From contig CP136069.1 of NCBI GenBank assembly GCA_032622095.1, positions 19,667,326 to 19,731,325 on the forward strand: a stretch of 64,000 nt of DNA, in the 5' to 3' direction. A model generated the notes under the pieces. That model saw only the letters and a list, made by a program, of their open reading frames with translations, did not search any database and was not told the origin of the DNA. A program made the translations under genes and the position numbers. The stretch comes from Siphonodentalium dalli. Its lineage: Eukaryota; Mollusca; Scaphopoda; Gadilida; Siphonodentaliidae. This document shows positions 13,316 through 41,782 of the stretch, in pieces (positions within the stretch are counted from its first letter, which is position 1; each line of letters opens with the position of its first letter).

Positions 13316-13577
13316 TTAACCTTTTCGTGACGGGAGATGTGCTGGTGCAGCATTAACTATCATATGCCAGTGCATTCTCTTATATATGCGAGTCTCCCGT
13401 AGGGAGCCTCGAACATATAATAGAATGCACTGGCTTACAAGGCAAAGGTAAATATAGGTAGTTCAATGCATTCTCTTATATATGTGAGGCTCCCTATTGG
13501 CGACTCGTATATATAAGAGAATGCAATGGCACAGCGTTTTCGAAAATTTCACGAAGCTCTAGTCATTGTATGGTTAA
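13316..13577. mobile_element. Family B element with two hairpin modules (copy B1)
   Basis: A 262-bp element bounded by TTAA at 13316-13319 and 13574-13577. The left end reads TTAACCTTTTCGTGACGGGA and the right end is a diverged reverse complement (AGCTCTAGTCATTG...GTTAA). Inside are two head-facing hairpins at 13365-13434 and 13463-13531. TTAACCC-type ends with TTAA flanks are the signature of piggyBac-like elements; no transposase is present, so it is a MITE. Confidence 0.7.
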
Positions 13578-13889
13578 CAATGCGGTGATTTCACGATAGA
13601 ATGTTCTTTGTACCCTTTCGCACTCCCAATCATTTGATATCGATATATACTCAGCGGGTGTAGCTTCGATAAGTTGCCGTCTATTATGAATACCTCAATG
13701 TTTACATGTTTCCGCACAATCAGTATTAAAGGTTACATTGAGTTCGACTTCCATGTAAATTTTATCAATAGTAATTTCCAAGTGTGTACACAGAGAGGTT
13801 CAGCTAAATTAACTTGCGACATATAACGCGTGTAATATATGTGACCCGCCATATCAAATCCAGTCGTAAGTCGGGATTTTTTTACCATG

Positions 13890-13960
13890 TGCCAATGCAG
13901 TCTCTTATATATGCGAGTCGACCATAGGTCGCCTCGCATATATTAGAGAATACATTGGCC
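13890..13960. repeat. HP hairpin module (A1 left)
   Basis: Near-perfect palindrome starting GCCAATGCAGTCTC with the central CGACCATAGGTCG. The arms pair over about 30 bp. Confidence 0.9.
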
Positions 13961-14092
13961 AAACAATTTTTTATCATTTTTTTAAATAAATGTTTCTTAC
14001 AATTTTTAGGACATAAAATAAAACCCTGCAGGGAGCCCCACACATATATAGAAGCATATAGAAGAGTGTCGTCTGCTCATGTTTGTCTGGGG

Positions 14093-14761
14093 TTTGTCTT
14101 CTCGTTATACCTCAATGATATGGAATGTTACTTGTCCAAACAAAATGTGATCGGCTTACGTAAAGTTAATAGTGAAATTGAGAACAGGCTGGGCTGTTAC
14201 CTGAAAATATTCTTAATATTATACGCTGATGATACTGTAATCATGGCCGAGACACCAAAGGCACTACAAAAACACTTAAATGAATTTGAAAAATATTGCA
14301 ACAAGTGGAAATTGACGGTTAATACTGATAAGACTAAAATTCTGAACCTGTCGAAAAGTAGCCTCCCAAAGAAAACGAAATTCATATTTAAAGGGAGTAA
14401 GATTGATATTGTCAAACAGTTTAACTACCTAGGTATAAGTTTCTGCAAATTTGGCTCATTCAACCCAACTAAAAAGATATTAACGGACAAGGCCACGCGA
14501 GCCATGTATTCCATTATAGGTAAGTCACGGAAACATTGTTTATCCATCAGTAATCAGCTCGACCTATTTGATACATACGTGACACCCATTCTCCTTTATG
14601 GCTGTGAGGTATGGGGGTTCGATAATAATGACATACTCGAGAGCGTACAAAGAAAATTCATAAAACATATTCTTGGACTGAGACCGTCGACCCCAAATTT
14701 TATGATATCTGCTATCTTGAAAATTGGGGTCGTCAGATATGGATTGTGCCAGTTTCAGTAG
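14093..14761 (+). pseudogene. LINE reverse transcriptase, C-terminal half of RT domain
   Basis: The open frame begins in host-element sequence, but the LINE-encoded part starts at about FSLYLNDMECYLSK. Recognisable features are the catalytic ILYADDT motif (about 14215-14235), KWKLTVNTDKTK and the FNYLGI and YVTPILLYGCEVWGF segments, all in the order seen in a LINE lineage common in molluscs and cnidarians. The palm motifs before YADD are missing through 5' truncation. The frame breaks at 14761. Confidence 0.8.
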
Positions 14762-14971
14762 AACTTTGGGAAATCGATCAGCGCCACTATTGACAACCTT
14801 GCACCAATATTGAACCATTCTGACTTTAATCATTATTTCAAGTGGTAGTTTGCCACTTTCACCATAAGTTTCCCCTGGTTAAACCGAATACAGGGGTTAC
14901 TAAACGATTTTAATCAGCCACACATTTGGTGCTCAGGACGTGTAACCGACGTTAACCAATTAGTCTCATAC

Positions 14972-15421
14972 GTGAAATGCGGTCTAATATCAGAATTCAG
15001 AGATAAATGGGAGAGAGATATACATAATAGCAGTCGTGGTAGAATTTACCGAATATTTAAACACAGTATATCCTTTGAAAGTTATCTCGACATCCTGAAT
15101 CACACCAATAGAAGTTTATTGTGTAAATTCCGTACGAGTAACCATAAACTACCAATCGAGACAGGGCGGTGGAATGGCTCTGATCGCCGTGACCGGATTT
15201 GCCCATTATGTGACTCTGAGGAAGTAGGAGACGAATTCCACTACCTTTTTAGCTGCACAGATCTAACAATTCATCGGAATCGCTTGTTATCCCAACTCAT
15301 GGAAAGACCAACAAATACCATAGTGATGAGCGAACTCATGAATGAACAAAATCCGAAGGGTCTCCGCAAATTATGCGATTTCATCAAGTTAGTAAACCGC
15401 AAAATTTCTGACAGTCAGTGA
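14972..15421 (+). pseudogene. LINE C-terminal region with zinc-binding motif
   Basis: This frame continues the same LINE after a decayed 200-bp stretch. It carries LCKFRTSNHKLPIETGRW, then CPLCDSEEVGDEFHYLFSC, a C-x2-C...H...C cluster typical of the RT-associated zinc-binding domain. It ends at a natural stop at 15421 and is followed by about 400 bp of 3' tail. Confidence 0.75.
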
Positions 15422-15904
15422 ATAAGCACTTAAGTTAACTTATATTTATTTCAGAGTTGTTGTTGCTGCTGCTGTTGTTGTTGATATTATTATTACTATT
15501 AGTAGGGTTCTTTATGATACTATCGTTTGTGCTAATCAAATCACCGATTAGGATCCCAAGCATAAGGACTTATTGATAAATGATTTGAAGTTAATATATA
15601 TAGACTCGTGGCAGTATACAAGAATATATATACATAATTATGTTAAATTATTTATACACATCTGCGGATGCATGTTTGTTTATATTGAATGTATTTGACG
15701 TTATAACACTGATATATAGTGACGAAAATTGTTCACCGGAAGTCCACATGCTATTGTATATAATGTACATATTGTAAATGTGTTTTCTCCATACCATTAT
15801 TATAAGGTGATGAGAATAAAGAATTGAATTGGTTCTGTATGGGTGAAATTATAAAATTGTTAAAGAATACAAGAAAAAATTATTAAAATTGTAAAATATT
15901 GTTA

Positions 15905-15977
15905 GGCCAATGCATTCTCTTATATATGCGAGGCGACCTATGGTCGACTCTCGCATATATAAGAGAATGCATTGGCA
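15905..15977. repeat. HP hairpin module (A1 right)
   Basis: Same palindrome in the opposite orientation, with centre CGACCTATGGTCG. It is followed by ATAGGGTAAAACAATCCCGA, the mirror of the left-flank sequence. Confidence 0.9.
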
Positions 15978-16028
15978 TAGGGTAAAACAATCCCGACTTA
16001 CAACTGGATTTGATATGGCGGGTCACAT

Positions 16029-16669
16029 ATTGCTAGCGCTAGTCACGTGTGTAATCTGATATGTATGTATGTCTACACGTACTCGACTATAGCGTTTTGA
16101 ACATCAATATATAGGTCCTAAAACGTTTTGGCAATAACATTATCATGGGAAGGAGTATCAATAGTTATGCATTTATCAATTCATGGAGTCAGCTGTCCAA
16201 TTCGTCTGTGTCTTGTGTTTAAATTAGAACAATAGGGTGTCCCAACCATAGCCGTATGGGCCAGGGAGGCTGGGAGGAATGTAGCCCAAACGTTTTGATA
16301 GCTCAAAATTCGGTCAATTTTCGGGCAAATTGGAGATATTTTCGGTCAAATTTGGACAATTTTCGGGCAAATTGAATGGTATTTCATGAGCAAATTGTGG
16401 CAAATTACAGTTTTTCCCAAAAAATATATTGCGGTTAAAGGTACTTCTGTACGGAATGGCGTAACAACGGAAACTGTCTTAGTGTGTGTAGTGCATACTG
16501 ACATCCGCGAAAGGTCGACGGACTGTCATTTGGACGTAATTGCGTATAACTAGTCTAGCTTTAACTCTAAATTACACCAGACGCGGCACCGGTGAGACAT
16601 CCAGACGTGAAAACACGGTGCAATTCGGCAATTGCCGCATTAATCGAGCTCCATAAATAAACAAATTAG
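16029..16669. other. Non-coding gap
   Basis: Contains a short cluster of imperfect TTTTCGG(G/T)CAAATT repeats at about 16310-16370. No gene is recognised. Confidence 0.35.
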
Positions 16670-16773
16670 TTGCTTGTCCCCATAAACGCGGGGAAACAAA
16701 AGGCCGATTCGAAACTATATATATAGTATAGTTTCGAATCGGCCTTTTATTTCCCGTTTACGGGGACAAGCAA
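16670..16773. repeat. Near-perfect 104-bp palindrome
   Basis: Arms starting TTGCTTGTCCCC pair with GGGGACAAGCAA at the far side; the centre is a TATATA run between GAAACTATA and TATAGTTTC. It is a single foldback unit; no second copy was seen in the window. Confidence 0.85.
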
Positions 16774-17336
16774 CAAATCTGTCTGTGGTATAAGAACATT
16801 TTATCCAAATAGTGTAGCCTTTGACGTGGGAGTGATTTTCTGATATATATTATATGCCATTAAAGACATAATATGTACTTGTTCGGGTGCGTGAAACTGA
16901 TAAGATAGTATTCAGGAGATATGATAACTGGAGGAATGTAACATTCTATTAACATAGCTGAAAATCTGAAGCAAATAGACTGTACCACTCCATAGAAAAC
17001 ATCATCTGAACTACGCTCAATTGTAAATATTTACTACTCGATTCGGGACGCATCTATCGGCGATAAACTAACGAAAATGTTTTCGCCATCGAGAGTCACT
17101 GCATTTAATTAATATATAAGAATGACGGTGTTTGTTGTCAATTTGGATATAATATTTGTAAAAATACCTGCTTTGAAAAAAATTAATCTACATTTCTATT
17201 TGATCACCCTACCGGAGTGTTTCACATCACTTTAAATCCCCCAATCTCATTCGTTCAATTACATGTATATAGATCCAATAGAACTGCGATGCAATGGGAA
17301 TTGAATATTTAGCAATAAATAGTCGTCGTGACTCAC

Positions 17337-17560
17337 TTAACCCTTTCAGTGCCAAGTCCGATTTTTGTATCAACCCATATACCCTGTGCCAATGCATTCT
17401 CTTATATATGCGAGTCGACCATAGGTCGCCTCGCATATATACGAGAATGCATTGGCCTAACAATTTTTCATCATTTGTTATTATTTTTTACAATTTTGTT
17501 ACAATTTTAATAATTTGTTCTTATATTCTTTAACAGACTTATTTTGTAGGTTTAGTGCCA
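17337..17560 (+). mobile_element. Family D element with one HP hairpin (partial, D1)
   Basis: TTAA followed by CCCTTTCAGTGCCAAGTCC, then a single hairpin at 17397-17456 and an AT-rich tail. The same terminus opens the full palindrome at 41254-41461. No clear right terminus is present here, so this copy is truncated. Confidence 0.6.
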
Positions 17561-17892
17561 GGGAATCTTACATTTTTCAAGGGCATCAAAATTATTACTA
17601 TGAATACTTGGTGATAGTTTTGAGTTATAACATGCCCCTAAGGTTTTATCCAGTTTGTTTTTAAATTCGCTATAGCATGCTTAAGCATACCCAAAAAAAA
17701 TTCAACCCAAACAAAAAAAAAATCTAAAAAAAAAGAAAAAGTTAGGCATATTGACCCGATTATTCTCTCAGTGTGTGAATAGACCGTTTTACGATTAAAC
17801 ACTACAGCTATATTGCATTACAATTTGCTACAATCGACACAGAATAAAATTAATGACATGCATGTATCCAGGTGTCATGACGTCAGATGATG

Positions 17893-19167
17893 TCACACTT
17901 TTGACCCAAACATTTTGGTGCCTTCTGGGTCTAATAAACTGTAAATCTCTATTTGCGAATAAGTGGAATATCGTCCGTTAACGTTAGGCCCTCCGGCGTC
18001 CACCACAACAGACGCTTCTCGGCTCGCTCGACTGTCGGCGTTAGAACGAGCATCGTCCTTGACACTAAGTCGGCTTCCACCATTATTACTCCCTTCGATT
18101 TCACGGATTATCGGAGTTTTCTCCACGTCACCAGCCACAGCGACGCTATCACCGTCAACACCAGAGTTTGCTTCAGACTGAGGTTTGGGTTTGTTTAGTG
18201 CTTTTGCCTTCCATCTTTCCGTTGCAAACCTCGAGTATTTGTTCGGATCGTAACCAGCATGAGTCCTATTCACCACGTCTGCGAAAGACATTGGCATGCC
18301 TCTCGTCCGATCAGTCGCCAAATGCTTTTCGGTGTCAAACTTCTCAATTTCACCTGCATACCCACGAGCAGCAGAATCCTGATAAACATTATCACTATTA
18401 CTAGTATTTTGTTGATTGTTTATTGGCGGATAAACATTATTGTTGGTATTTTGTTGATTGTTTATTGCCGGTAAAACATTATTGTTTGTATATTGTTGAT
18501 TGTTTATTGCCGATGAAACGTTATTGTTGGTATTAGCATTGAGAGCTTTCTGAGTGCTATATTTCTGTTCTGGTTCAGCGAATCGAATAGTTTTCCGAGG
18601 TTTTCCAGACCGATATCTGGATGTCTGCGGATGTTCGTCCACGTAATCTGAATAATCAACGTACTCAGGTTCCTTAAGAATACTTTGAGGCTCATACCCG
18701 ACATTAACCAGTCGTTTAGCAAGATACTCCCTGGCTTTCGGGTCTGTCGAAGGGTCATAAACGCCCGATTTGTGATAAGCTAGCGGTGGTCTGCGATTAT
18801 TTCCTGCGATCTGAGGATAGTATCCACCAGCTTGAGGATGGTAACCATAGTAACCACCGGCCTGAGGATAGTAACCACCAGCCTGGGGATAATATCGTCT
18901 GAAGAATGGATACAAGTCTTCCACCTGGTTGAAGTGTTGATCTTTAACCAGCGGGTGAGCGGCTTTGTATGAATTATACAAGAAGTATTCGTAATACGGA
19001 GATTCGTCTGATGCATAATTCTGCCGGCGCCTCTTCAAGTTTGTTTTTTGTGGCCATTTCTGACCAGAAGGAGATTCGTCTGTTGCATTTGTCTGGCGGT
19101 GGCTCTTTGTTTTTTGTTGCCATTGCTGACCTGCCTTTTTAGCCTTCGCCTGGGTTGTTGTAAACAT
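17893..19167 (-). CDS. Disordered repeat-containing protein, paralogue 2
   Basis: A complete 424-residue frame from ATG at 19167 to TGA at 17893, not recognised as a named family. The N-terminus is basic and Gln/Lys-rich. Residues about 90-120 hold four YYPQAGG-like repeats; about 220-270 hold three or four NNNV-x-PAINNQQNT repeats; the C-terminus ends IEIYSLLDPEGTKMFGSKV. DPSTDPKAREYLAKR followed by SILKEPEY, and KTIRFAEPEQ, match the order and partly the sequence of the exon at 1-1443, so the two are probably paralogues. There is no signal peptide or membrane segment. KTIRF resembles a PP1 docking motif, but paralogue 1 has T in place of I, so I give that no weight. AATCTATAG at about 19190 could be an upstream splice acceptor. 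Role unknown; low-complexity repeats suggest a scaffold or matrix-like protein, which is speculation. Confidence 0.75.
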   Translation of the reverse strand: MFTTTQAKAKKAGQQWQQKTKSHRQTNATDESPSGQKWPQKTNLKRRRQNYASDESPYYEYFLYNSYKAAHPLVKDQHFNQVEDLYPFFRRYYPQAGGYYPQAGGYYGYHPQAGGYYPQIAGNNRRPPLAYHKSGVYDPSTDPKAREYLAKRLVNVGYEPQSILKEPEYVDYSDYVDEHPQTSRYRSGKPRKTIRFAEPEQKYSTQKALNANTNNNVSSAINNQQYTNNNVLPAINNQQNTNNNVYPPINNQQNTSNSDNVYQDSAARGYAGEIEKFDTEKHLATDRTRGMPMSFADVVNRTHAGYDPNKYSRFATERWKAKALNKPKPQSEANSGVDGDSVAVAGDVEKTPIIREIEGSNNGGSRLSVKDDARSNADSRASREASVVVDAGGPNVNGRYSTYSQIEIYSLLDPEGTKMFGSKV

Positions 19168-19858
19168 TATTCCATATCAGTATGTTCTATAGATTATCCA
19201 ATGTTCGATGCCTTGTAATACTGACTGATGGTCCTGAAAAAGGATATAAATACAGTTATAAAATAATATACGAATATCGAATGTATTGTGTCCATATAGA
19301 GCATTCATCGTTTTATAACATCAACATTCTTAATATAAAGACTGCACAGGCAGTTATTTCACTTCGCTGTGCGTAGAACCTCTGACAACCGGCAAGCAAC
19401 TGACAAATATGACCAGATAAACGAACCAGGTGCAATCATATGGTAAATATATTTATTACATGTTCCTATCATTATTCCATTTAATAAACCCATTCTATAC
19501 ATTGTGATTTTAAACGTTCGTTTACTAACAGGAAATAGTGCCAGGTGACCTATGACTTCCGGTTTGTCGTCTATTTACATTACGTACGCTATACGTCTCA
19601 AAATACCATGGCTTCCAATATTTTCCCAACAAATTCTAATGAATGAAGAGTTTGAGAAGTTATTTCATTAAATATACTCCATTAAATACGTCACATCGTC
19701 TTTATTTATCTGGGACTATTTCTTTACGCGGGCAAACAACGCATAGTAACGTGAAAGGGCACTATAAACGCCGATGTTAGTTTCACGTTCCATTTGTTGA
19801 TTTAATTATGTTTTATCGAGGTTTTGGATCATGTAATAAATAGAATCTACAACTCGTG
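19168..19858. other. Non-coding DNA upstream of paralogue 2
   Basis: Possible promoter or first intron of the minus-strand gene at 19167. No TATA box position or exon can be supported from sequence alone. Confidence 0.3.
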
Positions 19859-19964
19859 CCCAGTTTATAGCGGAATTTACAAAACTCGTCCAGTAAATTA
19901 AATAAAAGGCTCGATCCAGACCTAATTTACGGGACACGTTTTGTAAATTCCGCTATAAACTGGG
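19859..19964. repeat. Inverted repeat, ~33-bp arms
   Basis: CCCAGTTTATAGCGGAATTT at the left is answered by AAATTCCGCTATAAACTGGG at the right, with a ~40-bp spacer. Confidence 0.85.
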
Positions 19965-20448
19965 GCCTCGTTATATATCCTCTATAGCCAGTATGGACAT
20001 ACCATCTTGCCTTCGACTTCCAGTTTGGCTTAGCTATAATGCATATAGTTTAGACTGTGGTTATAATGCCGTCTTCCATAAATAGGTGACCAGTGGATAT
20101 ACTGATTATATGTCCTATTTGACAAACATAATAATGACACATTCATTTTATTACATCGATTTTGTTCGTATAACCAGGAAAAATAAAAATAGCTTCCAGT
20201 CCTTATTCCAAAACGAGTGAATATGTGCCGTAAGAAAACAATAAAACAAAACAAATCAAACGAACAAAGTAAACAAATGACAACAAAAATAAACCACCCA
20301 CAATATTACAGCGACGTTATCCACTCAAACATGGTTTAAAAACTGATATTAAAAAAGTCAAAAATATAACGTCCAACTCCTGATGCTCATAATTCATCAT
20401 ACCCATTATTATGTTGTTTCTTTATCCTGACCCATCCCACGATTTAAA

Positions 20449-20490
20449 ACTAACAAACAAACAAACAAACAAACAAACAAACAAACAAAT
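20449..20490 (+). repeat. (AAAC)n microsatellite
   Basis: Uninterrupted tetranucleotide repeats of about ten units. Confidence 0.95.
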
Positions 20491-20519
20491 TGAAATGACT
20501 ATATTTGTCGTACTCATAT

Positions 20520-20612
20520 AATTATTATAAACACACACATGTATATATCTTATTATAAACACACACATGTATATATATTATTATAAACACACACATGTAT
20601 ATATATATATGG
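20520..20612 (+). repeat. ~28-bp tandem repeat, 3 copies
   Basis: Three copies of TTATTATAAACACACACATG followed by a variable TATATA run. A longer TA run lies at about 20724-20748. Confidence 0.9.
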
Positions 20613-21484
20613 CCAAAGACTCTATACTTATATATCTAAATGTACGCCAAGCATGTACCATGTAAATTATAATATTTCAATTGTATTAATTATCTTACGC
20701 TCTTTGTCAACACACGACGATGAGTTATATATATATATATATATATAATAAATTGAACTGAATTAAAACAAAACATGTGAGACTTTCAAGAAAGTGTTCG
20801 TATAATCGAAGGTTTCGATTAGTGTCTTTTAGGATTAGACGCGACAGTACATACCAAGCACCAACAAATTTAAAGACAGTCCCAATTCACTCGATATATC
20901 ACTAGAAAAATTCACTCACCTTGATTCATTTCAGAATTTATTTCTAGAATATTGCTCCCACTCTTGATCCGGGAAATAGAATCTTCAAAACATCAACTAT
21001 GTGCCACTAAAACATCTTCTCTGTCCATCGTGGTGCGAAAACGTCAACGATTATTACTAAAGATTCGAATGACCTATATATCAGAGAATTGGTTATCGTA
21101 ATCTGGATATAGCATGGGATTTACACGCCCCAAAGCAATGAACTATGGAAATTTCAATAGGAATCCATTGGGTAAATGTCAATAGCAATTTGTGTGCCAC
21201 TTCAAGTCTATTACAAAGATACAACATGTTTTCAATTGGAAACAATTTGTATGTCTCAATGGCTCTCGATTGCTTACAAGCTAATAAAAATACAAGGACA
21301 AACAACTGTACACTTCGTTACGTTTCCGGATAAAATTTAACTCTTTTTGCGCTAAATACTCAATGACGGGTAATTCTCATAGGAAATGTTCAGATAATAA
21401 GCTCACCACGTTGAACTATATTATCTGAAAATTCCCTAAATTCCTACCGATGAATGACTCCAATGACTCCAATGAACGGCCCTG

Positions 21485-21554
21485 TGCCAATGCATTCTCT
21501 TATATATGCGAGTCGACCATAGGTCGCCTCGCATATATAAGAGAATGCATTGGC
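21485..21554. repeat. HP hairpin module
   Basis: GCCAATGCATTCTCTTATAT and its mirror around CGACCATAGGTCG. Partner of the module at 21697-21767, in opposed orientation. Confidence 0.9.
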
Positions 21555-21696
21555 TTAACACATAAAAAAAATGATAAAATTGTCAAAGAATGTAGAAAAA
21601 TATTATAAAAATTGTTAAAAAATGTAAGAAAAAATTATAAAATTGTTAAAGAATGTAAGAAAAAATGGTAAAAAGTGTTAAAAAAGTTTTTTTTTA

Positions 21697-21767
21697 GGCC
21701 ATTGCATTCTCTTATATATGCGAGGCGACATATGGTCGACTCGCATATATAAGAGAATGCATTGGCA
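21697..21767. repeat. HP hairpin module
   Basis: Second member of the pair; followed by CACAGGGCATAACTG, as in the intact family P copy at 38295. Confidence 0.9.
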
Positions 21768-22115
21768 CAGGGCATAACTGTAACCATCACAATGTGGTCA
21801 ATGAACCGGTTCCAATGATATCCATAACTTAACTCTTTTTGTGCTAAATACTCAATGACGGGTAATTCGCATAGGAAATGTTCAGATAATAAGTTCACCA
21901 TATTGAACTATATTATCTGAAAATTCCCTAAATTCCTACCGATGAATATGAATTCTTCTGCACTTGCCCCTTTACCCATCAAACCGGCCAAAACCGGCCA
22001 AATAAAGCTTCAACAGCCTAAAATATCTTCGGTCTGTCTCAATAGAACCATACATATATGGATATCATTGGAACCGGCTCCTTGACCACATTGTGATAGT
22101 TACAGTTATGCCCTG

Positions 22116-22185
22116 TGCCAATGCATTCTCTTATATATGCGAGTCGACCATAGGTCGCCTCGCACATATAAGAGAATGCATTGGC
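22116..22185. repeat. HP hairpin module
   Basis: Same palindrome, one mismatch in the right arm (CGCACATATA). Confidence 0.9.
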
Positions 22186-22263
22186 CTAAAAAAAATCTTT
22201 TTTTAACACTTTTTACCATTTTTTCTTACATTCTTTAACAATTTTATAATTTGTAATGTGTTA

Positions 22264-22334
22264 AGCCAATGCATTCTCTTATATATGCGAGGCGACCTAT
22301 GGTCGACTCGCATATATAAGAGAATGCATTGGCA
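22264..22334. repeat. HP hairpin module
   Basis: Same palindrome in the opposed orientation, centre CGACCTATGGTCG. Confidence 0.9.
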
Positions 22335-22665
22335 CAGGGCCCTTCTGTTGGGTAAAGGGTCTTTTTGTGCTAAATACTCAATGACGGGTAATTCTCATAG
22401 GAAATGTTCAGATAATAAGTTCACCACGTTGAACTATATTATCTGAAAATTCCCTAAATTCCTACCGATGAATATGAATTCTTCTGCACTTGTATTATTT
22501 ATGTGTATGTCTGCCTGTATATAGTCTGCTCATAGTTCCTATACATCCATCCAAACGAGGAATGGACCATTCTGATGTGTATACGTCAATGACTAATGGG
22601 GAAATCTATTTGGTTAAAAAATATATCCAGTTCGTGCATCAAATTACATATATATAGAATTTACG

Positions 22666-22888
22666 TACAGTAATGCTCCAAGTAACCGACTCCTTAACCA
22701 CAGCAGAATTATGGGTAATTTTCAGGATTTAGTCGGAAATATGGCTTGTTGCCATTCATCGGAAAGCTCTCGTAAGTTCACCGAGAGCTTTCCGATGAAT
22801 GGCAAGAAGCCATATTTCCGACTAAATCCTGAAAATTACCCATAATTCTGCTGTGGTTAAGGAGTCGATTACTTAGAGCATTACTGTA
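22666..22888. mobile_element. 223-bp near-perfect palindrome (foldback MITE)
   Basis: Arms of about 105 bp starting TACAGTAATGCTC(C) pair almost throughout, with a short loop near 22772-22785. TA at both outer ends is compatible with a Tc1/mariner-type target, but no transposase is present. Confidence 0.8.
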
Positions 22889-24400: not shown

Positions 24401-24458
24401 ATAGTAGTAAATAGTGAAACAACACGCTTCATCATATCCTGCGTCCAAGGAAGTTTAC

Positions 24459-26600: not shown

Positions 26601-26619
26601 GGATTAACATTTTATATCC

Positions 26620-26900: not shown

Positions 26901-26908
26901 ATTTTAAG

Positions 26909-30205: not shown

Positions 30206-30463
30206 TTAACCCTTACATGACGGGAGCTGCATTGGTGCAACATTATAGATCCTGTGCCAAAGCATTCTCTTATATATGCGAGCCTCATATATATAGGGAG
30301 CATCGCATATATAAGATAATGTACTGGCTTACAAGGTTAAGGTAAATATTTTAGGCCAATGTATTCTCGTATATATGCGAGGCTCCATATGAGAGATTCA
30401 CATATATAAGAGAATGCGGGTTTTTCGCAAAATTTCAGGAAGCTCCAGTCATGGAAGCGTTAA
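30206..30463. mobile_element. Family B element (B2) with two hairpins
   Basis: Left TTAACCCTTACATGACGGG, right end the reverse complement of TTAACGCTTCCATGACTGGA; TTAA at 30206-30209 and 30460-30463. Hairpins at 30255-30328 and 30354-30420 are more diverged than in A and P. Confidence 0.75.
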
Positions 30464-31250: not shown

Positions 31251-31471
31251 ATCTGGAAATCAGCCTGATTTCTCGACTTTGAAGACCCCCTGGAGATATA
31301 ATATCTCTGCCCTCATGTCAAAAAATAAAATTAATATGACACCATATTCCTGTGAATCCTGTCTGTAAAATATAGAGATAAGAATCTTGATTTATGCTTT
31401 AATACAGCATTCCGGTATAATCGAAGCATTTCAGTGACATGCACGGATAGTTCATTAATCTTATTACTTAA

Positions 31472-31912
31472 ATGTGACCCGCCATATCAATTTTTTTACC
31501 CTGTGCCAATGCATTCTCTTATATATGCGAGTCGACCATAGGTCGCCTCGCATATATAAGAGAATGCATTGGCATAACAATTTTTTACAATTTAAATAAT
31601 GTCTTCTTGTATTCTTTAACAATTTTATAATTTCACCCATACAGAGCACCAGACAAACATGAGCAGACGACACACTTCTATATGCTTCTATATATGTGTG
31701 GGGCTCCATGCAGGGTAATGGATGTTTTTTATTTTATGTCCTAAAAATTGTAAGAAACCTTTATTTAAAAAAAATGATAAAAAATTGTTAGGTCAATGCA
31801 TTCTCTTATATATGCGAGGCGACCTATGGTCGACTCGCATATATAAGAGAATGCATCGGCACAGGGTAAAACAAATCCCGACTTACGACTGGATTTGATA
31901 TGGCGGGTCACA
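31472..31912. mobile_element. Family A element, intact short form (A2)
   Basis: 441 bp with ATGTGACCCGCCATATCAA / TTGATATGGCGGGTCACA ends, hairpins at 31504-31574 and 31791-31861, and an AT-rich core containing CAGACAAACATGAGCAGACG. It is the reference copy for the empty LINE site of A1. Confidence 0.85.
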
Positions 31913-32212
31913 AATGGGTACCGTACACTAAATACGGCCATTTGTGGAACAATCTCATTTTATACTCAACGGAATATATGCAACGAATGAATGAATTTGA
32001 GCTATGGATTAGTCCAAAATACACTCATGTGCTATTTGAACGATACAAACAACATGGTAAATATAATGCTGTTTGCATCGTTCATAAATAACATGAGTGT
32101 ATTTTTCATTAATCCATGGCTCAAATTCATTCATTTATTGCATATATTCTGTTGATTATAAAAGGAGATGGTCCCATACATAGGCGAACGTGGTGTACTG
32201 CACCCCTTTAAT
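31913..32212. mobile_element. Foldback element U, copy 1
   Basis: About 300 bp with long imperfect inverted arms: TACACTAAATACGGCCATTT and ATGAATGAATTTGAGC at the left, mirrored by GCTCAAATTCATTCAT at the right. It directly abuts element A2. A second copy is at 40575-40970. Confidence 0.7.
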
Positions 32213-32271
32213 ATTATAATTATACATATTGGTGATATTTTAGGTTCAAATTGGCATGTCCACTTAACCCT

Positions 32272-32579
32272 TTCTATACTGAATGGATTCTCCAAATACG
32301 ATAAAAAGTGTACATATGAATGGTCTATTATTCATTTGGAAGGATGTTAAGGTTATAGAATCAGACGACAAATACATAAATGTGCAGAAGGAACCCTATG
32401 GGGAAATGTTCAGATAATAAGTTCAATAAACGACCTATGGTCGTTTGTTGAACTTATTATTTGGGGAAATGTTCAGATAATAAGTTCAATAAACGACCTA
32501 TGGTCGTTTGTTGAACTTATTATCTGAATATTTCTTATGGAATAACTACTCATCAATGATGTTTTAGTATAGAAGGATT
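32272..32579. mobile_element. Family C element with duplicated foldback
   Basis: Ends (T)TAACCCTTTCTATACTGAA and the reverse complement TTTAGTATAGAAGG. A 63-bp foldback unit, GTTCAGATAATAAGTTCAAT around CGACCTATGGTCG, occurs twice in tandem at 32400-32527. Confidence 0.7.
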
Positions 32580-33277: not shown

Positions 33278-33860
33278 CAAATTTCAAGTCGATAGCTCTA
33301 CCCGTTTCCGAGATCTCGTCTGCGCATGCGCGAAGCTGGCGTCGCACGGGCTCGGCGGGCTATTCAAAAACCAAATTTCAAGTCAATAGCTCTACCCAGC
33401 CCGACGATTTCAAGTCGATAGCTCTACCCGTTTCCGAGATCTGGTCTGCGCATGCGCGAAGCTGGCGTCACACGGGCTCGGCGACCCGATAATATTCGTA
33501 TTCGGGGCAAGATATATTCACATACCAAATTTCAAGTCGATAGCTCCACCCGTTTCCGAGATCTCGTCTGCGCATGCGCGAATCTGGCGTCGCACGGGCT
33601 CGGCGACCCGATAAAATTCGTATCCGGGGCAATACACATTCACATACCAAATTTCAAGTCGATAGCTCCACCCGTTTCCGAGATCTCGTCTGCGCATGCG
33701 CGAAGCTGGCGTCGCACGGGCTCGGCGACCCGATAAAATTCGCATCCGGGGCAAGATACATTCACATACCAAATATCAAGTCGATAGCTCCACCCGTTTC
33801 CGAGATCTCGTCTGCGCATGCGCGAAGCGGGCGCCGCACGGGCTCGCCAATACGACAACG
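33278..33860 (+). repeat. 122-bp tandem repeat within the array (first block)
   Basis: Units containing CAAATTTCAAGTCGATAGCT and CGTCTGCGCATGCGCGAAGC recur exactly every 122 bp at 33452, 33574, 33696 and 33818, with shorter units before. Because 122 is not a multiple of three, the overlapping Arg-rich frames on both strands are not genes. A second block of three units is at 34626-34990. Confidence 0.9.
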
Positions 33861-34625
33861 TTCACCGCCTGGTCAAACTACACACACGTACCAAGTTTCG
33901 TCCCGATCGGTCGAGAATCGTAGATTTGTATAAATGACAGACAAACAAACAAACAAACATACATACAGACAGAGGTCTTCAAAATATATATGAGACTAGA
34001 AGGTGACCCGGGCTTTGACCTTGAATTGACCATTTTGAAGGTCAAGGTCAGTTGAGGTAACGATTTGACCCGTCCAAGACACTGCCCGGACAAAAGTACC
34101 CGACAAAAGTACCCGTCGAAATCCATCCTGTTTTACCCGATTTGACCTTGAATTGATCATTTTGTAGGTCAAGGTCAGGTCGGGGTCACAATTTGACCCG
34201 TCGAAAACACTCAGTAGACAAAAGTAAACCCTATGTATCAAATTTAGTGGAAATCCCATCAAAATTCGCGATTTGACCTTGAATTGACCCGATTTCAAGG
34301 TCAAGGTCACGTCGCACGGGCAAATTAATAGGCTTATGCCACTTCTCTGCCGGAAATACCCCACATACCAAGTTTCATCGAAATCCCGTGATATTCGGGC
34401 GTTTGACCTTGAAATGACCCGATTTCAATGTCAAGGTCACGTCGCACGGACAAATTAATATGCCTATGCCACCCCCGGCCGAAAATACCCCCACATACCA
34501 AGTTTCATCGAAATCGGGTCGGCCGTTTTCGAGTTCATCGCGAATACACACACACACACACACCCTCACACACACACACACAGAGATAGATACACACACA
34601 GACAGATCTTCCAAAATATATAATA

Positions 34626-34990
34626 GACTAGCCGATGAGCCCGACGTTGTCCGGGCTATTCAAATACCAAATTTCAAGTCGATAGCTCCACCCGTTTCCG
34701 AGATCTGGTATGCGCATGCGCGAAGCTGGCATCGCACGGGCTCGGCGACCCGATAAAATTCGTATCCGGGGCAAGATACATTCACATACCAAATTTCAAG
34801 TCGATAGCTCTACCCGTTTCCGAGATCTCGTCTGCGCTTGCGCGAAGCTGGCGTCGCACAGGCTCGGCGACCCGATAAAATTCGTATCCGGGGCAAGATA
34901 CATTCACATAGCAAATTTCAAGTCGATAGCTCTACCCGTTTCCGGGATCTCGTCTGCGCATGTGCGAAGCGGGCGCCACACGGGCTCGCC
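34626..34990 (+). repeat. 122-bp tandem repeat (second block)
   Basis: Three further units of the same sequence, again following ACTAGCCGATGAGCCCGACG, so the block belongs to the module body. Confidence 0.9.
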
Positions 34991-35395
34991 AATACGACAA
35001 CGACGACCGCCTGGTCAAACTACACACACGTACCAAGTTTCGTCCCGATCGGTCGAGAATCGTAGATTTGTATAAATGACAGACAAACATACAGACAGAC
35101 AGACAGAGGTCTTCAAAATATATATGAGATGGAATAATCCTCCCAGCAATCAAAGCGACAGACAAGGTAGATTAATGTACTGATTTTAATCAATGAAATA
35201 GCAACATATAATCAGTTTATATTATAAGAACATCAGAAAATATGTTCCAATCCAAAAAATATACATTGGTGATGACGATCTATAAAATATATGACACAGC
35301 TGCCTATACATGTTTTCACTAAGGCCTTATGTGCACCTGATACGATCGGCTATTACATTATATAGTCCGAATCTGTTAAGAAAAAATAACAGTTT

Positions 35396-35842
35396 AAATG
35401 CCTACTTAATTTTTCGAACCCCCCAGATTATATAATATAAGATATATTCCATATCATATACCATTTGAAAGAGGAAGCTTCAAACATTGATTTTTCAACT
35501 TATTCGGTGTCATAAACTGTATGCTCAAGTTTCTGCACAAATTCTAATATTTTCAATGGAAGGGGAATCTGTCTATATATTTAGAGATATAGTTGTTCCC
35601 CTTCCATTGAAAATAAACTATAGTTTGAATTCTATTTTATTCTGGGAGCCACAACGGGGAAATGTTTTTTATGATTTCAGCTATTTTCTATTACTCTATG
35701 GGCACCTTCTGAGACGCAGACGTTGCAAATGGTGATGACTTATAGTATTTTAATGATATTTTATATATTGTTATAAAACTGTATATCAAGGCACTATTAA
35801 AAATAATCGGTGACTCGAAAATTAAATGGGCCTTCAATATAT
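35396..35842. mobile_element. Dispersed element R2, copy 2
   Basis: Colinear with 30773-31250, with the same internal hairpin (about 35552-35615) and diverged ends. Confidence 0.7.
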
Positions 35843-36276
35843 GGTAACCAGGTAATCCACCAATACCACACGCTACGATATTGTCATGATTGTGCTTGCT
35901 GTTCAATTAACCGATTATGTTATCAAAGAACAATAACTCCAAATATAATGCACGTACGTATTTCAGTTAAAATCACTTTTCCGAAATAACGGGATGGCTA
36001 ATACCGATAGACAGATGAGTATATCCCCCCAGCATTGGGCATATGTGTTACAAAATATATGTAATATTAGGCACAACATGTTATGCATAAATTCATAAAA
36101 GAGTAGGATCCGTCTGTCAAGCGCACGAAGCGCACACAGAAGGGGGGGGGGGGGCATTTCAGCTGGACCATGCAGGTGTCTATATATATGGACAACACAA
36201 ACATATAAATTAGTGGTTCAATATTGAGATCAGGAAGCCTACGTCCGTATCGTGTGGTATTGATGGTATATATAGG
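35843..36276. other. Non-coding gap
   Basis: Includes a G-homopolymer at about 36143-36154. Nothing else is supported. Confidence 0.3.
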
Positions 36277-36575
36277 ATATCCACACTTTTTCAGTGGTTA
36301 TGGGTTATATCTCATGAGTGATGACAAAACATTGAATTTCCACGAGTGGCTTTAGCCACGAGTGGAAATTCAAATGTTTTGTCATCATGAATGAGATTTA
36401 ACCCATATCCACTGAAAAAGTGTGGATATTCTGTTTATTAGATACTTTAGTTACTTGTCTATGGCCCCAATGAATGTCAATACATAAGAAATTTCAAGCT
36501 GATATCACTCACTAGTGCATGGGATATCACTTATATATCACTGCTAAAACCTTATAATTCACGGGCAAGAATATA
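36277..36575 (-). mobile_element. Foldback repeat T, copy 2
   Basis: Palindrome at 36277-36429, then the GATATCACTTATATATCACT tail in reverse order to copy 1 at 24085. Confidence 0.75.
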
Positions 36576-36863
36576 ATAAACATGGTTATTATGTTATATT
36601 ACAATGTTATTTTACTAACATATTTCTCACTCTACAATGTAATAGTCGGCCGTGTCGGATGTGAGGTGAGCAAAGTATCTTTAATCACGATATGGATTCG
36701 ACCCATGCATTTTCGAAGTGGAACACTTTCCTCTTGGGTGCTTTTATTTGTACATCTGAAGCACCCACTGTCTATATACGGTTGATTTCCAGATCACACG
36801 TCACGCCCATTGATTTAAAGCACGTGATACCACATACCCTGCCGTTATAACATGTCGCCTTCG

Positions 36864-37431
36864 TTTACCCTTTTCATGACGGGAGCAGCATTAAAGATCA
36901 CGTGCCAGTGCATTCTCTTATATATAACATGAAACCCACATAATATCATTGAAAAATCCATTAGATATTTTCTGATCTCTCACTAGTGAGTAATCGCCGA
37001 GTGCTTCCCGGGATACTTGGCATCGCGCCAATTAAATTACCGCGCGGATTAATACTATTTAGAAAAGCCGTGCTCTAGTTTTTTTCATGTGATATACAAG
37101 ATCTTAAGCTCGTTATGTTGGGATATAAGATTTTATGAAACTCGTTTGATATATTTGATTCACAGCTCGTATACGACTCGTTGTGAATCAAATTTATCAA
37201 ACTCGTTTCATAAAATCTTATATCCCAACATAACTCGTTGGAGATCCTCTATATATGCAAGATTCACATAGGGAGCCCCGCATATATAAGAATTTGCACT
37301 GGCTTACAAGGTCAATGTAAATATTGTTAGGCCAATATATTCTCTTATATGGGAGACTCGCATATATAAGAGAATGCATTGGCACAGGGTTTTCGCAAAA
37401 TTTCAAGAAGCTCCAGTTATGGAAGGATTAA
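36864..37431. mobile_element. Family B element (B3) interrupted by another foldback
   Basis: Left end TTTACCCTTTTCATGACGGG and right end CAGTTATGGAAGGATTAA. The first hairpin is split after CATTCTCTTATATA at about 36926; its far arm resumes near 37250. The ~320-bp insert contains a palindrome at 37112-37234. Confidence 0.65.
37112..37234. repeat. 123-bp palindrome inside B3
   Basis: GTTATGTTGGGATATAAGAT at the left pairs with its mirror at the right; AAACTCGTTT occurs in both arms. Confidence 0.85.
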
Positions 37432-37633
37432 AGGGAAACTAATAATTACTGCGGTTGAAGAAACAAATGGGTTGAATAAGGGGGTTCCCGCGTACGGATT
37501 AAAGATACTCTCTTGTGGTGGATTGTCAATTTAATTTCTTTATGTGCGATTTTCTTGAATGGAAGACATTGCAGGCTACGGGATGCTATAGAGCATATAG
37601 AGCATATAGCACCATGGTCAAATTTACGACTAT

Positions 37634-37911
37634 ATGTGACCCGCCATATCAAATCCAGTCGTAAGTCGGGATTTTTTTTTACCCTGTGCCAATGCATTCT
37701 CTTATATATGCGAGTCGACCATAGTTCGCCTCGCATATATAAGAGAATGCATTGGCCTAACAATTTTTTTACAATTTTAATAATTTGTTCTTGTATTCTT
37801 TAACAATTTTATAATTTCACCCATACAGATCCCCAGACAAACATGAGCATGCAGACGACACTCTTCTATATGCTTCTATATGTGTGTGGGGCTCCCTGCA
37901 GGGTAATGGAT
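37634..37911 (+). mobile_element. Family A half-element (A3)
   Basis: Left end ATGTGACCCGCC..., one hairpin at 37687-37757 and the core, but no right hairpin or terminus. CATATAGCACCATGGTCAAA lies on both sides (37603 and 37914), a long direct repeat flanking the copy. Confidence 0.7.
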
Positions 37912-38047
37912 TCATATAGCACCATGGTCAAATTTGTATACACCGTTGATCAATCCAATAAGGACACAGAAATATCTCTATATATAAATTTCAAATATCA
38001 ACTCACAAACACGTCACAGCTGCAAGCCATGTCAAATAGAATATAGG

Positions 38048-38447
38048 TTAACCCTTTACCCAACAGAAGGGCCCTGTGCCAATGCATTCTCTTATATATG
38101 CGAGTCGACCATAGGTCGCCTCGCATATATAAGAGAATGCATTGGCTTAACACATTAAAAATTATAAAATTGTTAAAGAATGTAAGAAAAAATGGTAAAA
38201 AGTGTTAAAAAAAGATTTTTTTTAGGCCAATGCATTCTCTTATATATGCGAGGCGACCTATGGTCGACTCGCATATATAAGAGAATGCATTGGCACAGGG
38301 CATAACAGTAACTATCACAATGTGGTCAAGGAGCCGGTTCCAATGATATCCATATTTGTATGGTTTTATTGAGACAGACCGAAGATATTTTAGGCTGTTG
38401 AAGCTTTATTTGGCCGGTTTTGGCCGGTTTGTTGGGTAAAGGGTTAA
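38048..38447 (+). mobile_element. Family P element, intact copy
   Basis: Exactly 400 bp between TTAA sites, with ends TTAACCCTTTACCCAACA and TGTTGGGTAAAGGGTTAA. Hairpins lie at 38077-38146 and 38225-38295, arranged as mirror images. The right third contains TTTGGCCGGTTTTGGCCGG. Ends and target fit a piggyBac-like MITE. Confidence 0.85.
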
Positions 38448-38458
38448 AACAATGTAAT

Positions 38459-38980
38459 AAAACCCTTTCTTGACTAAATTGACGAGTAGTAGCGCTGAAG
38501 GGATCAATTTCACCAAACAAAAGTGCTGAAGGGTACACAGGGTTTGTGATCGGCACAAACACCGTTACTTAAATGGCACCATTAGCAGTTTGTTTTCAGT
38601 ACATTTTAATATTCATTGGAACGTAAACAATTATTCTCTAACAGAAATCATGGCAGATACGAAAGCTGAAAAGCCTTCAGAATGACATTTCAAAACCTGT
38701 GTACCCTTCAGCACATTTTGAAAAACCTGTGTACCCTTCATCACTATTTTTGGTGAGAGTGACCCCTTCAGCAGTAGTAGCCGTTTGACATTTGTTGAAC
38801 TTTTTATCTAAGCATTACCCGCCAATGAATAGCTAGGAATTCATCTGTATTTGTATTATCTATTCGTGTGTCTGTCGTCTGCTTATATTTCCTGAATGTC
38901 CATCCAGACGAATAATAGACCACTCCAATGTATACTTTTATAACTGAATGGGGGAATCCATTTAGTAAAGAAAGGGTTAA
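38459..38980. mobile_element. Family C element with a nested inverted-repeat element
   Basis: Left AACCCTTTCTTGACTAAATTG and right CATTTAGTAAAGAAAGGGTT are inverted. The nested element at 38493-38772 begins CGCTGAAGGG and ends CCCCTTCAGC, flanked on both sides by AGTAGTAG. Confidence 0.7.
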
Positions 38981-40560
38981 AGATACTGTTTTACGAGGTT
39001 TTGAATCTAATGTTATGACCTCGTCGTGAAATATACAATGTTATGGTCATGAGATGTCACGTAAAAGAGGGAATCTCAATTTAAAATGGCGGAATACAGT
39101 ACTGTTAGGATAGGACGATTCGGTATAATCCATGTTCTGTTCGAGGTAGTAATGATAGAGTTGTCTATCTTTAAGCGCATGAGGAATATGCGACGGCCTG
39201 TCTCACAATGGCGCCCAACATCGATTGAAAGCACATTTGAAATATATCCGGGGGGGGGCAACGATTCCAAACCACAGTACAGTTTTTTTGCTATGTTTGC
39301 CTGATCGGCCGCGAAGTGTTGAATGAATGTTTCTCCTGGATAAACATTCTATATAGTATCCAAAACCTACATTACTTGTTATTGTGAAGACAAGCTGTCA
39401 GGTGGCTTTTATGAAGGAAAGTTAATCTGTGTTAGTTACAATTAAAATATAAATATATAAACTAGAATATAATCTCGCCATTTATTTACATTCATTTCGT
39501 ACCATACCAACTTCGTACCATACCAACTCGTAACCGATTTAGTGATCTCATAACCACTGGTCGTGCATCATTTCGTACAAGTGCGATTCATCTCGTACCT
39601 TCGTTTGAAAACGACAATGAGAGCATCATCATATACACACCTGAATAATCACATCAAAGGTGGATTTCATTTGAAATTAGGTTCTATTTCTTCATATAGC
39701 TATATATAGAAATGTAATTTAAATGGGAGCGAGTCACATAGAGGTTAATCTGACAATTATAGTCCATAAATAGGGTTGTGTTGACTCATCTCTAGATTAC
39801 GAATTGACTCATAATCGCATACGGGTTGATAATTCATTCAAATATGCCCCGCCCTTCTTAATATATCAGAAACGCAAGTACATACCGAAAGAAGATTTAA
39901 TTTTTACAATTTTGGGATAATATTATAGCAAACGAACAGTTGGTCGCCATTGTGTGATTACACTTACTACATGTATGTTGCGTATTAGGAAAATAAAGAC
40001 TACATTGCAATCATTTGTAGGATTTGTAGGAACTATCAAGCAGTGAAACAATCGTATAGTGAATATAGTCACGGTAATATCAAGCATGTTGCCGGTGGGC
40101 TTACATAAACCGCATTTGTCAGTTTGGTGCGAAATGGTTTTGCATCATTTTCCGAGTATAATTTCAAACTATCGTGTGACATTAATTTTTGTACTGTTCA
40201 TGATTGGATTAATCTGAATGGTTTGTCTTGAAAGGTCTTGAATGGATCGCATGTCCTCCCCATTGCGAGAGACAATGACTAATCTATTCAACAGAAAGAC
40301 CACACACACCATAGCGCGAAAACTAAAATATAAATCTCCTGAATTGCTATTTTCGCTTCTAAAACGTGGTGTGTGTAGAGTTCGATAAAATATTTTTTTC
40401 TCAATCAGAAACAAGATCAATACGAGTTGTTTCATACATAAACTAGTGGTATATGAGTCAATCGGTCCAAGGTATTAGTAGATAACAACATTATTTCCTG
40501 AGATAAATAAGTTTGTATCTCCAGTAAAATTTGATGTTGGGATGATGCGACATTTCAGCC
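38981..40560. other. Non-coding stretch
   Basis: Holds a short inverted motif around TAATGTTATGACCTCG (39010-39050), a G-run at about 39251 and CGTACCATACCAACT repeats at 39497-39530. No gene is supported. Confidence 0.3.
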
Positions 40561-40574
40561 CACCGACCTTAAAG

Positions 40575-40970
40575 GGGTGATGTACACTAAATCCGGCCAT
40601 TTATGGGACCAACTCCTTTTATACTCAACACAATATATGCAACAAATGAATGAATTTGAGCCATGGATTAGTGCAAAATACATGCGTTTGCTCTACGAAC
40701 GATGCAAACAACATGGTAATTTTAACGAAAATGAATTTATGACTGGAGTCATAACTTCATTTTCATTATAATTACCTTGTTGTTTGCATCATTCATAGAG
40801 TCATACATTCATTTTCATTATAATAACCACGTGGTTTGCATCGTTCATAGAGCACGTGTATTTTGCACTAATCCATGGTTCAAATTCATTCATTTGTTGC
40901 ATATATTATGTTGAGTATAAAAGGAGATGGTTCCATAAATGACAGGATTTAGGGTACAGTACCCCATTAA
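40575..40970. mobile_element. Foldback element U, copy 2
   Basis: TTAAAGGGGTGATGTACACT at the left and AGGGTACAGTACCCCATTAA at the right. Long imperfect arms run through ATGAATGAATTTGAGCCATGG. A local duplication of TTTGCATC(A/G)TTCATAGAG lies in the right arm. Homologous to 31913-32212. Confidence 0.7.
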
Positions 40971-41253
40971 TTGAATGGCGACACACTGTGGTTCACGATA
41001 ATGACCTACACTATATATTTTCAACTGGCATTCTCAACAACAACAAATACATGATGTGATATTATATAGTCATGACAATTAATAGCGTGTATCACCCGTG
41101 AATGTCCATATTTACACTTATATACATAAATATACAGAAAATCATGTGAATGCGATGGGTGTGTTCTTTGTAATGAAAATATGAAAAAACAACAAAATAT
41201 ACAACTACAAAATAATCTAATATAACTAAAATATATCGAATATCGCTGTCATT

Positions 41254-41461
41254 CCCTTTCAGTGCCAAGTCCGATTTTTGTATCAACCCATATTTCCTTG
41301 ATCATTTTTCAAATTTATTGATTATAATAATGTGATACATTGATGGAAAGAGCTCTAAGAGCTCTTTCCATCAATGTATCACATTATTATAATCAATAAA
41401 ATTTGAAAAATTATCAAGGAAATATGGGTTGATACAAAAATAGGACTTGGCACTGAAATGG
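41254..41461. mobile_element. Family D full palindrome (D2)
   Basis: Two ~103-bp arms meet at GAGCTCTAAGAGCTC. The outer ends CCCTTTCAGTGCCAAGTCC match the terminus of D1 at 17341, but the interior is unrelated to the HP hairpin. The flanking TTAA has decayed. Confidence 0.8.
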
Positions 41462-41648
41462 TATGTGCTATGTGTGACAATGATGAATGGTGGCTCACAG
41501 CATATCATATTGTGTAGATGGAATATTATAGGGCGAACATTCATGCATTCCCCGTAAAGCTAAACAACACAGATTAACATGTGTGGTAATCCTAACATTG
41601 GGATTATCATATAAAGCGGTGTTCACTATCCAAGGCTCAATTTTTAAG

Positions 41649-41782
41649 TTACCCTTTTATGACGGGAGTTGCGCTGGTGCAGCAATACAGATCCTGTGCC
41701 AGTGCATTCACTTATATATATGCGAGTCTCCCATATATAAGAGAATGCACTAGCTTACAAGGTCCATGTAAATATTGCTAGG
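41649..41782 (+). mobile_element. Family B element (B4), cut by the assembly gap
   Basis: TTACCCTTTTATGACGGGAG, a hairpin at 41699-41755, then GGTCCATGTAAATATTGCTA just before the gap, where the second hairpin should start. Confidence 0.7.

What the first reader, a model, noticed from the sequence alone, without database searches (positions are those of the whole stretch)
13316..41782. One ~70-bp hairpin shared by element families with different outer ends
About nineteen copies of the same near-perfect palindrome (arms GCCAATGCATTCTCTTATAT, centre CGACCATAGGTCG) lie in this zone and none outside it. They occur mostly as mirrored pairs just inside the ends of element families A, B and P, and singly in D and A3. 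The outer termini of these families are different sequences. So a terminal palindrome has been passed between elements, or independent ends have been attached to one hairpin-pair core (CCCTGTGCC...GGCACAGGG). Each element therefore has an inverted terminal repeat that is itself foldable, a double-hairpin design I do not know from a named family. Transcription would give strong stem-loops.
Basis: partly seen in the sequence, partly recalled or inferred. Interest (0 to 1): 0.8.

Follow-up and report, generated by a model that had tools for sequence, protein, structure and literature searches.

The report
Hairpin-pair mini-transposons with swapped ends
Several families of small non-coding jumping DNA elements, with unrelated outer ends, carry the same near-perfect DNA hairpin many thousands of times over in this 2.2-billion-base genome, which suggests that such elements can change their ends while keeping their cargo.

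Summary
The window has 19 hairpins (20 profile hits, one hairpin split by an insert), all at 13365-41754. But the zone is not special: the 20-base arm occurs 312,252 times exactly in the 2.2 Gb genome, control 0. Twenty-nine segments at preset places (134 kb) held 25 hairpins.

The outer ends differ. P, D1 and D2 have piggyBac-type ends with TTAA outside. Family A ends in GTGACCCGCC with a 4-bp AWWT duplication (9 of 11 end pairs). Similarity starts at one boundary, (C)CCTGTGCC. Exact patterns found no clean pre-insertion form, although A-type and D1-type ends do occur around other interiors. Exact junctions: 17,077 A, 37,607 P, 11,290 D1.

Best reading: chimeric MITE families, mobilised through different ends, sharing one hairpin-pair module that probably came from the older D2 lineage. 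Coral CMITEs (PMC2872659) are a precedent, but with TTAA only. No autonomous element with these ends was found among the loci read. How the module gained new ends is inferred.

The parts
13320..13573 (+). D2 element (piggyBac-type MITE); TTAA on both sides (13316-13319, 13574-13577); hairpins 13365-13434 and 13464-13531
   Evidence: sequence, profile hits, D2 copies compared, ends re-read
13841..16026 (+). A element, GTGACCCGCC ends, ATAT on both sides; hairpins 13890-13959 and 15906-15977; interrupted by a truncated LINE (about 14093-15833)
   Evidence: reverse transcriptase PF00078 E 4.4e-14
17341..17534 (+). left part of a D1 element: TTAA 17337-17340, CCCTTTCAGTGCC end, one hairpin 17387-17456, half of the A-type core; right end not delimited in the window
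   Evidence: alignment of 11 D1 copies
21479..21773 (+). P module (hairpins 21485-21554 and 21698-21767); outer ends not intact
21968..22359 (-). P element, CCCTTTACCC ends, hairpins 22116-22185 and 22265-22334; no TTAA on either side
30210..30459 (+). D2 element, TTAA on both sides, hairpins 30255-30328 and 30355-30418
31474..31911 (+). A element, AAAT on both sides, hairpins 31504-31573 and 31792-31861 (left end shortened inside)
36868..37427 (+). D2 element (TTTA left, TTAA right); first hairpin (36903-37303) split by an inserted palindrome; second hairpin 37331-37384
37636..37912 (+). A element cut off on the right; hairpin 37687-37756; flanked by a 23-bp direct repeat (37603-37625, 37913-37935)
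38052..38443 (+). complete P element, TTAA on both sides; hairpins 38077-38146 and 38226-38295; module CCCTGTGCC...GGCACAGGG at 38072-38300
41652..41782 (+). D2 element, shortened hairpin 41697-41754, runs into an assembly gap
41254..41461 (+). D1-type ends (CCCTTTCAGTGCCAAGTCC) around a different interior, without hairpin: D1-type ends are not bound to the module

Best explanation
These are families of miniature non-autonomous DNA transposons (MITEs) that are chimeras: a shared internal module (CCCTGTGCC, a ~70-bp hairpin, an A/T-rich core, the mirrored hairpin, GGCACAGGG; only half of it in D1) set inside different transposon ends. SHOWN: the families, their ends, the flanking TTAA or AWWT, the common boundary, the exact junction counts, and that exact patterns find no clean pre-insertion form. 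FOLLOWS from known biology: CCCTT ends with TTAA mean that P, D1 and D2 are moved in trans by piggyBac-type transposases; family A, with another end and an AWWT duplication, needs another transposase. INFERRED: the module first sat in the older D2 lineage; a few times it was joined to new ends (by insertion, or by template switching during gap repair); each chimeric founder then multiplied to many thousands of copies. The hairpin is carried as cargo. No sign was found that it is under special constraint now.
For: Discrete outer contexts in 122 hairpins from the window and 49 loci. TTAA outside 34 of 40 P ends and 25 of 31 D1 ends and 10 of 15 D2 ends; three window elements have TTAA on both sides. 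A: 4-bp AWWT in 9 of 11 end pairs. Five group consensuses become unrelated immediately outside CCCTGTGCC. Exact junctions: A 17,077, P left 37,607, D1 11,290. Joined-flank patterns: A 0, P 3 that look like deletion scars, D1 0. Ends are separable from the module: D1-type ends without hairpin at 41254-41461, A ends around other cargo in L071 with AAAT on both sides. D2 is older: the two arms of one hairpin mismatch at 15.8% of pairs (5 unpicked D2-type hairpins) against 4.9% (27 unpicked GACC-type hairpins); picked loci 17.1% (16) against 3.8% (49). L017 joins D2-like ends to a P/A-type hairpin and core. At least 128 piggyBac transposase matches in this genome.
Against: No autonomous element with these ends was found: 14 piggyBac loci read (of 128 matches, about 3.4-4.1 kb each), no hairpin in them, and only L069 with a TTAACCCTTT-type end, otherwise unlike P, D1 or D2. 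The transposase for A is unknown. Three A-core units lack complete A ends (L002, L009, L042), and L002 has empty paralogues (L056-L059), which the simple model does not explain. The constant boundary at CCCTGTGCC is more than random recombination would give. The joined-flank patterns were exact, so diverged parents would be missed. Two of 11 A pairs (L032, L076) have unequal flanks.
Confidence: 0.72

Rival explanations
1. The hairpin-pair unit was itself a transposon with hairpin-bearing terminal repeats (CCCTGTGCC...) and a TA target. It inserted into several older MITEs, which then carried it along.
For: The contexts share one boundary. TA stands next to the unit on both sides in A, L002 and L009 and on the readable side in D1, L030 and L046. 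L002 has empty paralogous sites. Core variants with constant ends and variable middles (P, A, D2) look like a transposon family.
Against: P and D2 joints are not TA. Ends in other contexts are rare: 940 SK-CCTG matches in the genome, all but 4 of the listed ones GT or GG, where random flanks would give a quarter of all ends. The L002 insert includes T6...A9 runs and shows no clear duplication. Of four such sites tested with joined flanks, only L002 gave an empty match; for L042 the one other copy is also interrupted, for L009 and L006 no contiguous match appeared (40 of 1,471 candidates scored). Exact joined-flank patterns found no clean parents.
Confidence: 0.2
2. The hairpin is kept because it is needed for transposition or survival of the elements (for example transpososome assembly, cruciform-driven gap repair, or small-RNA evasion), so unrelated elements converge on it.
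For: Families with different ends kept it (A, P and D1 exact junctions). Covariation score 0.106 against 0.068 in shuffles and 32 against 15.8 cells with a change on both sides, 0 of 500 shuffles each.
Against: In the unpicked sample the hairpin is no more conserved than its surroundings: 3.0% against 1.8% (A ends), 2.4% (P outer), 4.1% (A core), 0.6% (P core). The covariation rests mainly on two adjacent pairs that differ between D2 and the rest, and the number of pairs with changes on both sides (4) does not exceed shuffles (439 of 500).
Confidence: 0.05

Closest known systems
CMITE families of Acropora corals (Wang et al. 2010, PMC2872659; abstract, passages, Results part 1 of 2 and Discussion seen)
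   Same: TTAA duplications, piggyBac-type CCCTT ends, different TIRs around a conserved internal region (75 bp there), tandem arrays, internal region of unknown origin.
   Different: About 100 bp and about 1,600 copies in A. millepora. Here a pair of ~70-bp hairpins, uninterrupted elements of roughly 250-470 bp, >10,000 exact junctions each for A, P and D1, and one family (A) outside the TTAA class. The words 'hairpin' and 'palindrom' do not occur in that paper's main text. Sequences could not be compared (theirs is in a figure).
piggyBac-type (TTAA) MITEs in general
   Same: P, D1 and D2 ends and flanking TTAA.
   Different: Interiors of different MITE families are typically dissimilar (stated in PMC2872659), whereas here they are shared.
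MER6 (chimeric Tc1/mariner MITE carrying a SINE, PMC6887750; passages seen)
   Same: A MITE that became a vehicle for a foreign internal module.
   Different: One end type and one capture there; at least four end types here.
KolobokP (PMC9587614; abstract, outline and parts 1-2 of 6 seen)
   Same: Ends that are themselves element-like; duplications of 3-5 bp.
   Different: KolobokP has long direct terminal repeats, 5'-RR...YY-3' termini and, in autonomous families, a coding interior. Here there are inverted hairpins in short elements.

Membership tests
piggyBac-type MITE (for P, D1, D2) | TTAA target-site duplication | tested here: met
   TTAA outside P 34 of 40 and D1 25 of 31 ends, D2 10 of 15 ends; on both sides of 13320-13573, 30210-30459 and 38052-38443; not around 21968-22359
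piggyBac-type MITE (for P, D1, D2) | terminal CC[C/T]T motif and short TIRs | tested here: met
   ends CCCTTTACCCAACA, CCCTTTGAGTGCCAGG, CCCTTTCATGAC/CCCTTCCATGAC; motif definition from PMC2872659
piggyBac-type MITE (for P, D1, D2) | autonomous partner with the same ends | tested here: inconclusive
   at least 128 transposase matches; 14 loci read, none with matching ends
piggyBac-type MITE (for A) | TTAA target-site duplication | tested here: not met
   AWWT duplications, 9 of 11 end pairs
CMITE-like family group | different TIRs around one conserved internal region | tested here: met
CMITE-like family group | all members with TTAA duplications | tested here: not met
   A has AWWT
CMITE-like family group | homology to the coral internal region | not testable with these tools
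   sequence only in a figure of PMC2872659
KolobokP | 5'-RR...YY-3' termini and long direct terminal repeats | tested here: not met
   A begins GT; hairpins are inverted
Helitron (features recalled, no call) | no target-site duplication, CTRR 3' end behind a hairpin | tested here: not met
   families are flanked by TTAA or AWWT; the unit ends CAGGG
known structured RNA | Rfam match | tested here: not met
   0 matches in the window at gathering score

The most novel reading that the evidence does not exclude
The CCCTGTGCC-hairpin block works as an adaptor. Because unrelated elements share it, breaks or template switches at the hairpin let one element take over the ends of another and with them a new transposase, so a non-coding element escapes extinction or silencing of its transposase by changing ends. 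Family A ends wrapped symmetrically around another element's cargo (L071) would be the same process with another cargo.
Probability: 0.2. Interest if true: 0.75.

Novelty: new variant of a known kind. Interest (0 to 1): 0.5.

Why it matters
MITE families are sorted by their ends, and a family is thought to live only as long as its transposase (recalled view). A module that sits inside at least four end types and two duplication classes suggests that the cargo can outlive its ends. With exact junctions counted in the tens of thousands there are enough copies to date each switch and to look for intermediates. Hairpins at about one per 5 kb also matter for assembly, replication and small-RNA work in this genome.

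Tried and rejected
Text search for six element strings found no paper. Viral and prokaryote contigs have no exact match to a 24-base stretch. Scaphopod papers were searched to guess the species; the organism stays unidentified. A hypothesis that C4:252945235/252950453 is the autonomous A element was rejected: L071 has A ends and AAAT on both sides, but its interior matches another repeat (motif 1,503 times in the genome) and its longest open frame is 175 aa (these frames were not searched against families). KolobokP as parent was rejected. Special conservation of the hairpin was rejected.

Limits of the counts: 24 of 122 hairpins were left out as shorter than 62 bases and 27 of the remaining 98 were not assigned. 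Its 'outer' figure for P-left (21.3%) includes unrelated flank, and its D2 hairpin figure (12.3%) mixes left and right hairpin types; neither is used, and one search replaces the latter by arm-to-arm mismatch. In one search hairpins shorter than 62 bases were again left out and four were of unclear type. In one search the two D2 patterns overlap (9 of 14 and 9 of 12); the union is 10 of 15. L010-L049 were picked by exact arm matches at the start of one contig and include duplicated neighbourhoods (for example L011/L013, L021/L022, L025/L026, L027/L028, L029/L033), so they are not independent copies and understate hairpin divergence.
Full report
OBSERVATION. The arm has 36 matches in the window (up to 3 mismatches, 0.01 expected), all within 13366-41754. 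The stem is strong (-36.1 kcal/mol as DNA, z -14.8). A stretch holding a whole P element (38047-38452) folds as RNA at -221.5 kcal/mol against -93.6 for shuffles.

GENOME. The window lies in a 2.23 Gb assembly of 9 contigs. The exact 20-base arm occurs 156,203 + 156,049 times, control 0. Nine 10-kb segments at preset places held 18 hairpins in 3 of 9 segments. Twenty 2.2-kb segments held 7 in 4 of 20. Together 25 in 134 kb, about one per 5.4 kb; scaled to the genome this is of the order of 400,000, with wide error because the hits cluster.

FAMILIES. Sorting 122 hairpins (window and L001-L049) by the sequence just outside gives four main groups. P: TTAA-CCCTTTACCCAACAGAA(C/G)GG on the left and ...GTTACAGTTATG on the right. 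D1: TTAA-CCCTTTGAGTGCCAGG...CAACCCATATA, with one hairpin and half of the A-type core. D2: TTAA-CCCTTTCATGACGGGAGC... and TTAA-CCCTTCCATGACTGGAGC..., hairpins only about 28 bp apart. A: GTGACCCGCCATATCAAATCCAGTCGTAAGTCGGGAT8A on both sides. The shared part starts at (C)CCTGTGCC; outside it the group consensuses are unrelated.

FLANKS. TTAA stands outside 34 of 40 P ends and 25 of 31 D1 ends and 10 of 15 D2 ends. Of the window's elements, 13320-13573, 30210-30459 and 38052-38443 have TTAA on both sides; 36868-37427 has it on one side and 21968-22359 on neither. For A, 11 elements have both ends readable (10; the shortened left end at 31474 was read). Nine carry the same 4 bases on both sides (ATAT, AAAT or ATTT); L032 and L076 do not. 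Three of the 11 (L072, L076, L077) came because they are unusual, and L071 is an A-ended element without the hairpin.

MODULE AND ENDS. Exact patterns for A, P and D1 flanks joined without the module gave 0, 3 and 0 matches; the three P cases look like deletion scars. These patterns allow no mismatch, so diverged parents would be missed. A ends not followed by the T-run occur 186 times; of the 100 listed, more than half lie in local tandem arrays and several others join straight into the hairpin. One inverted pair (L071) has A ends and AAAT on both sides around a different repeat, so A ends are not bound to the hairpin. D1-type ends without a hairpin lie at 41254-41461. Exact family junctions number 17,077 (A, two per complete element), 37,607 (P left, one per element) and 11,290 (D1); D2 was not counted. 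Ends with C or G, then G or T, before CCTG number only 940, all but 4 of the listed ones GT or GG. The module is therefore found mostly in fixed family contexts.

EXCEPTIONS. Three A-core units lack complete A ends (L002, L009, L042), L006:3410 is a unit with another core, and L030 and L046 are half units. Joined flanks of L002, L009, L042 and L006 were searched (which scored 40 of 1,471 candidates). L002 gave four paralogous empty places: the insert runs from T6-A-CCCTG to CAGCG-T-A9 and no clear duplication is visible. L042 gave one other copy that is also interrupted; L009 and L006 gave no contiguous match. These units are the main evidence for independent movement, and I do not explain them fully.

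AGE AND CONSTRAINT. In the window and the nine 10-kb segments the hairpin differs from consensus by 3.0% (29 copies), A ends 1.8% (7), P outer 2.4% (6), A core 4.1% (5), P core 0.6% (4). So the hairpin is not specially conserved, and A and P look young. Within single hairpins the two arms mismatch at 15.8% of pairs in 5 unpicked D2-type hairpins and at 4.9% in 27 unpicked GACC-type hairpins, so D2 is the older lineage. In 39 distinct hairpins the covariation score is 0.106 against 0.068 in shuffles, and 32 cells have changes on both sides against 15.8 (0 of 500 shuffles each). Both rest mainly on two adjacent pairs that differ between D2 and the rest; the number of pairs with changes on both sides (4) does not exceed shuffles (439 of 500).

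TRANSPOSASES. PF13843 gives 128 matches in this genome, a lower bound. Fourteen loci of about 3.4-4.1 kb were read (L050-L055, L063-L070): no hairpin in them; only L069 has an AAAGGGTTAA end and it does not match P, D1 or D2 further in. The partner for A is unknown.

LITERATURE. Coral CMITEs are TTAA MITEs with different TIRs and a conserved 75-base internal region and can form tandem arrays (PMC2872659: abstract, passages, Results part 1 and Discussion). That makes this a variant of a described kind. KolobokP and MER6 (passages) are more distant parallels. Searches for hairpin-pair or palindrome-sharing MITEs listed no case that I recognised as closer; the library is open-access papers only, and of the other papers I saw only the listings.

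VERDICT. The pattern is real, genome-wide and well bounded. It is best read as chimeric MITE families sharing a hairpin-pair module. How the module gained new ends, and whether the hairpin helped, is open.

Noticed in passing
window 32399-32523: Two 63-bp tandem copies of another palindrome whose centre is the same 13 bases (CGACCATAGGTCG) as the hairpin's.
   Followed up: no
window 37603-37625 and 37913-37935: A cut-off A element is flanked by a 23-bp direct repeat, far longer than its 4-bp duplication; this may be a trace of abortive gap repair.
   Followed up: no
L020:1073-1724 (C1 about 0.544 Mb): Tandem array of D2 hairpins with a period of about 97 bp: a MITE interior turning into a satellite.
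   Followed up: partly
G000 C1 about 0.82-0.92 Mb: Hairpin arms recur with a period of about 11.2 kb, which suggests a large tandem array.
   Followed up: no
L078 (C3:22.30-22.31 Mb) and C4:290.93 Mb: Local tandem arrays (spacings of about 107 bp and 32 bp) holding the A end sequence.
   Followed up: partly
L071: A ends placed symmetrically around a different repeat (motif TCGGAAAAAAATTCCAGGCACGTATG): an A-ended element with other cargo.
   Followed up: partly
window about 14093-15833 and 9731-12412: Two LINE fragments with reverse transcriptase (PF00078); the first sits inside an A element.
   Followed up: partly
window 22666-22888, 31912-32209, 40569-40970, 41250-41465: Other long inverted repeats of unrelated sequence.
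   Followed up: no
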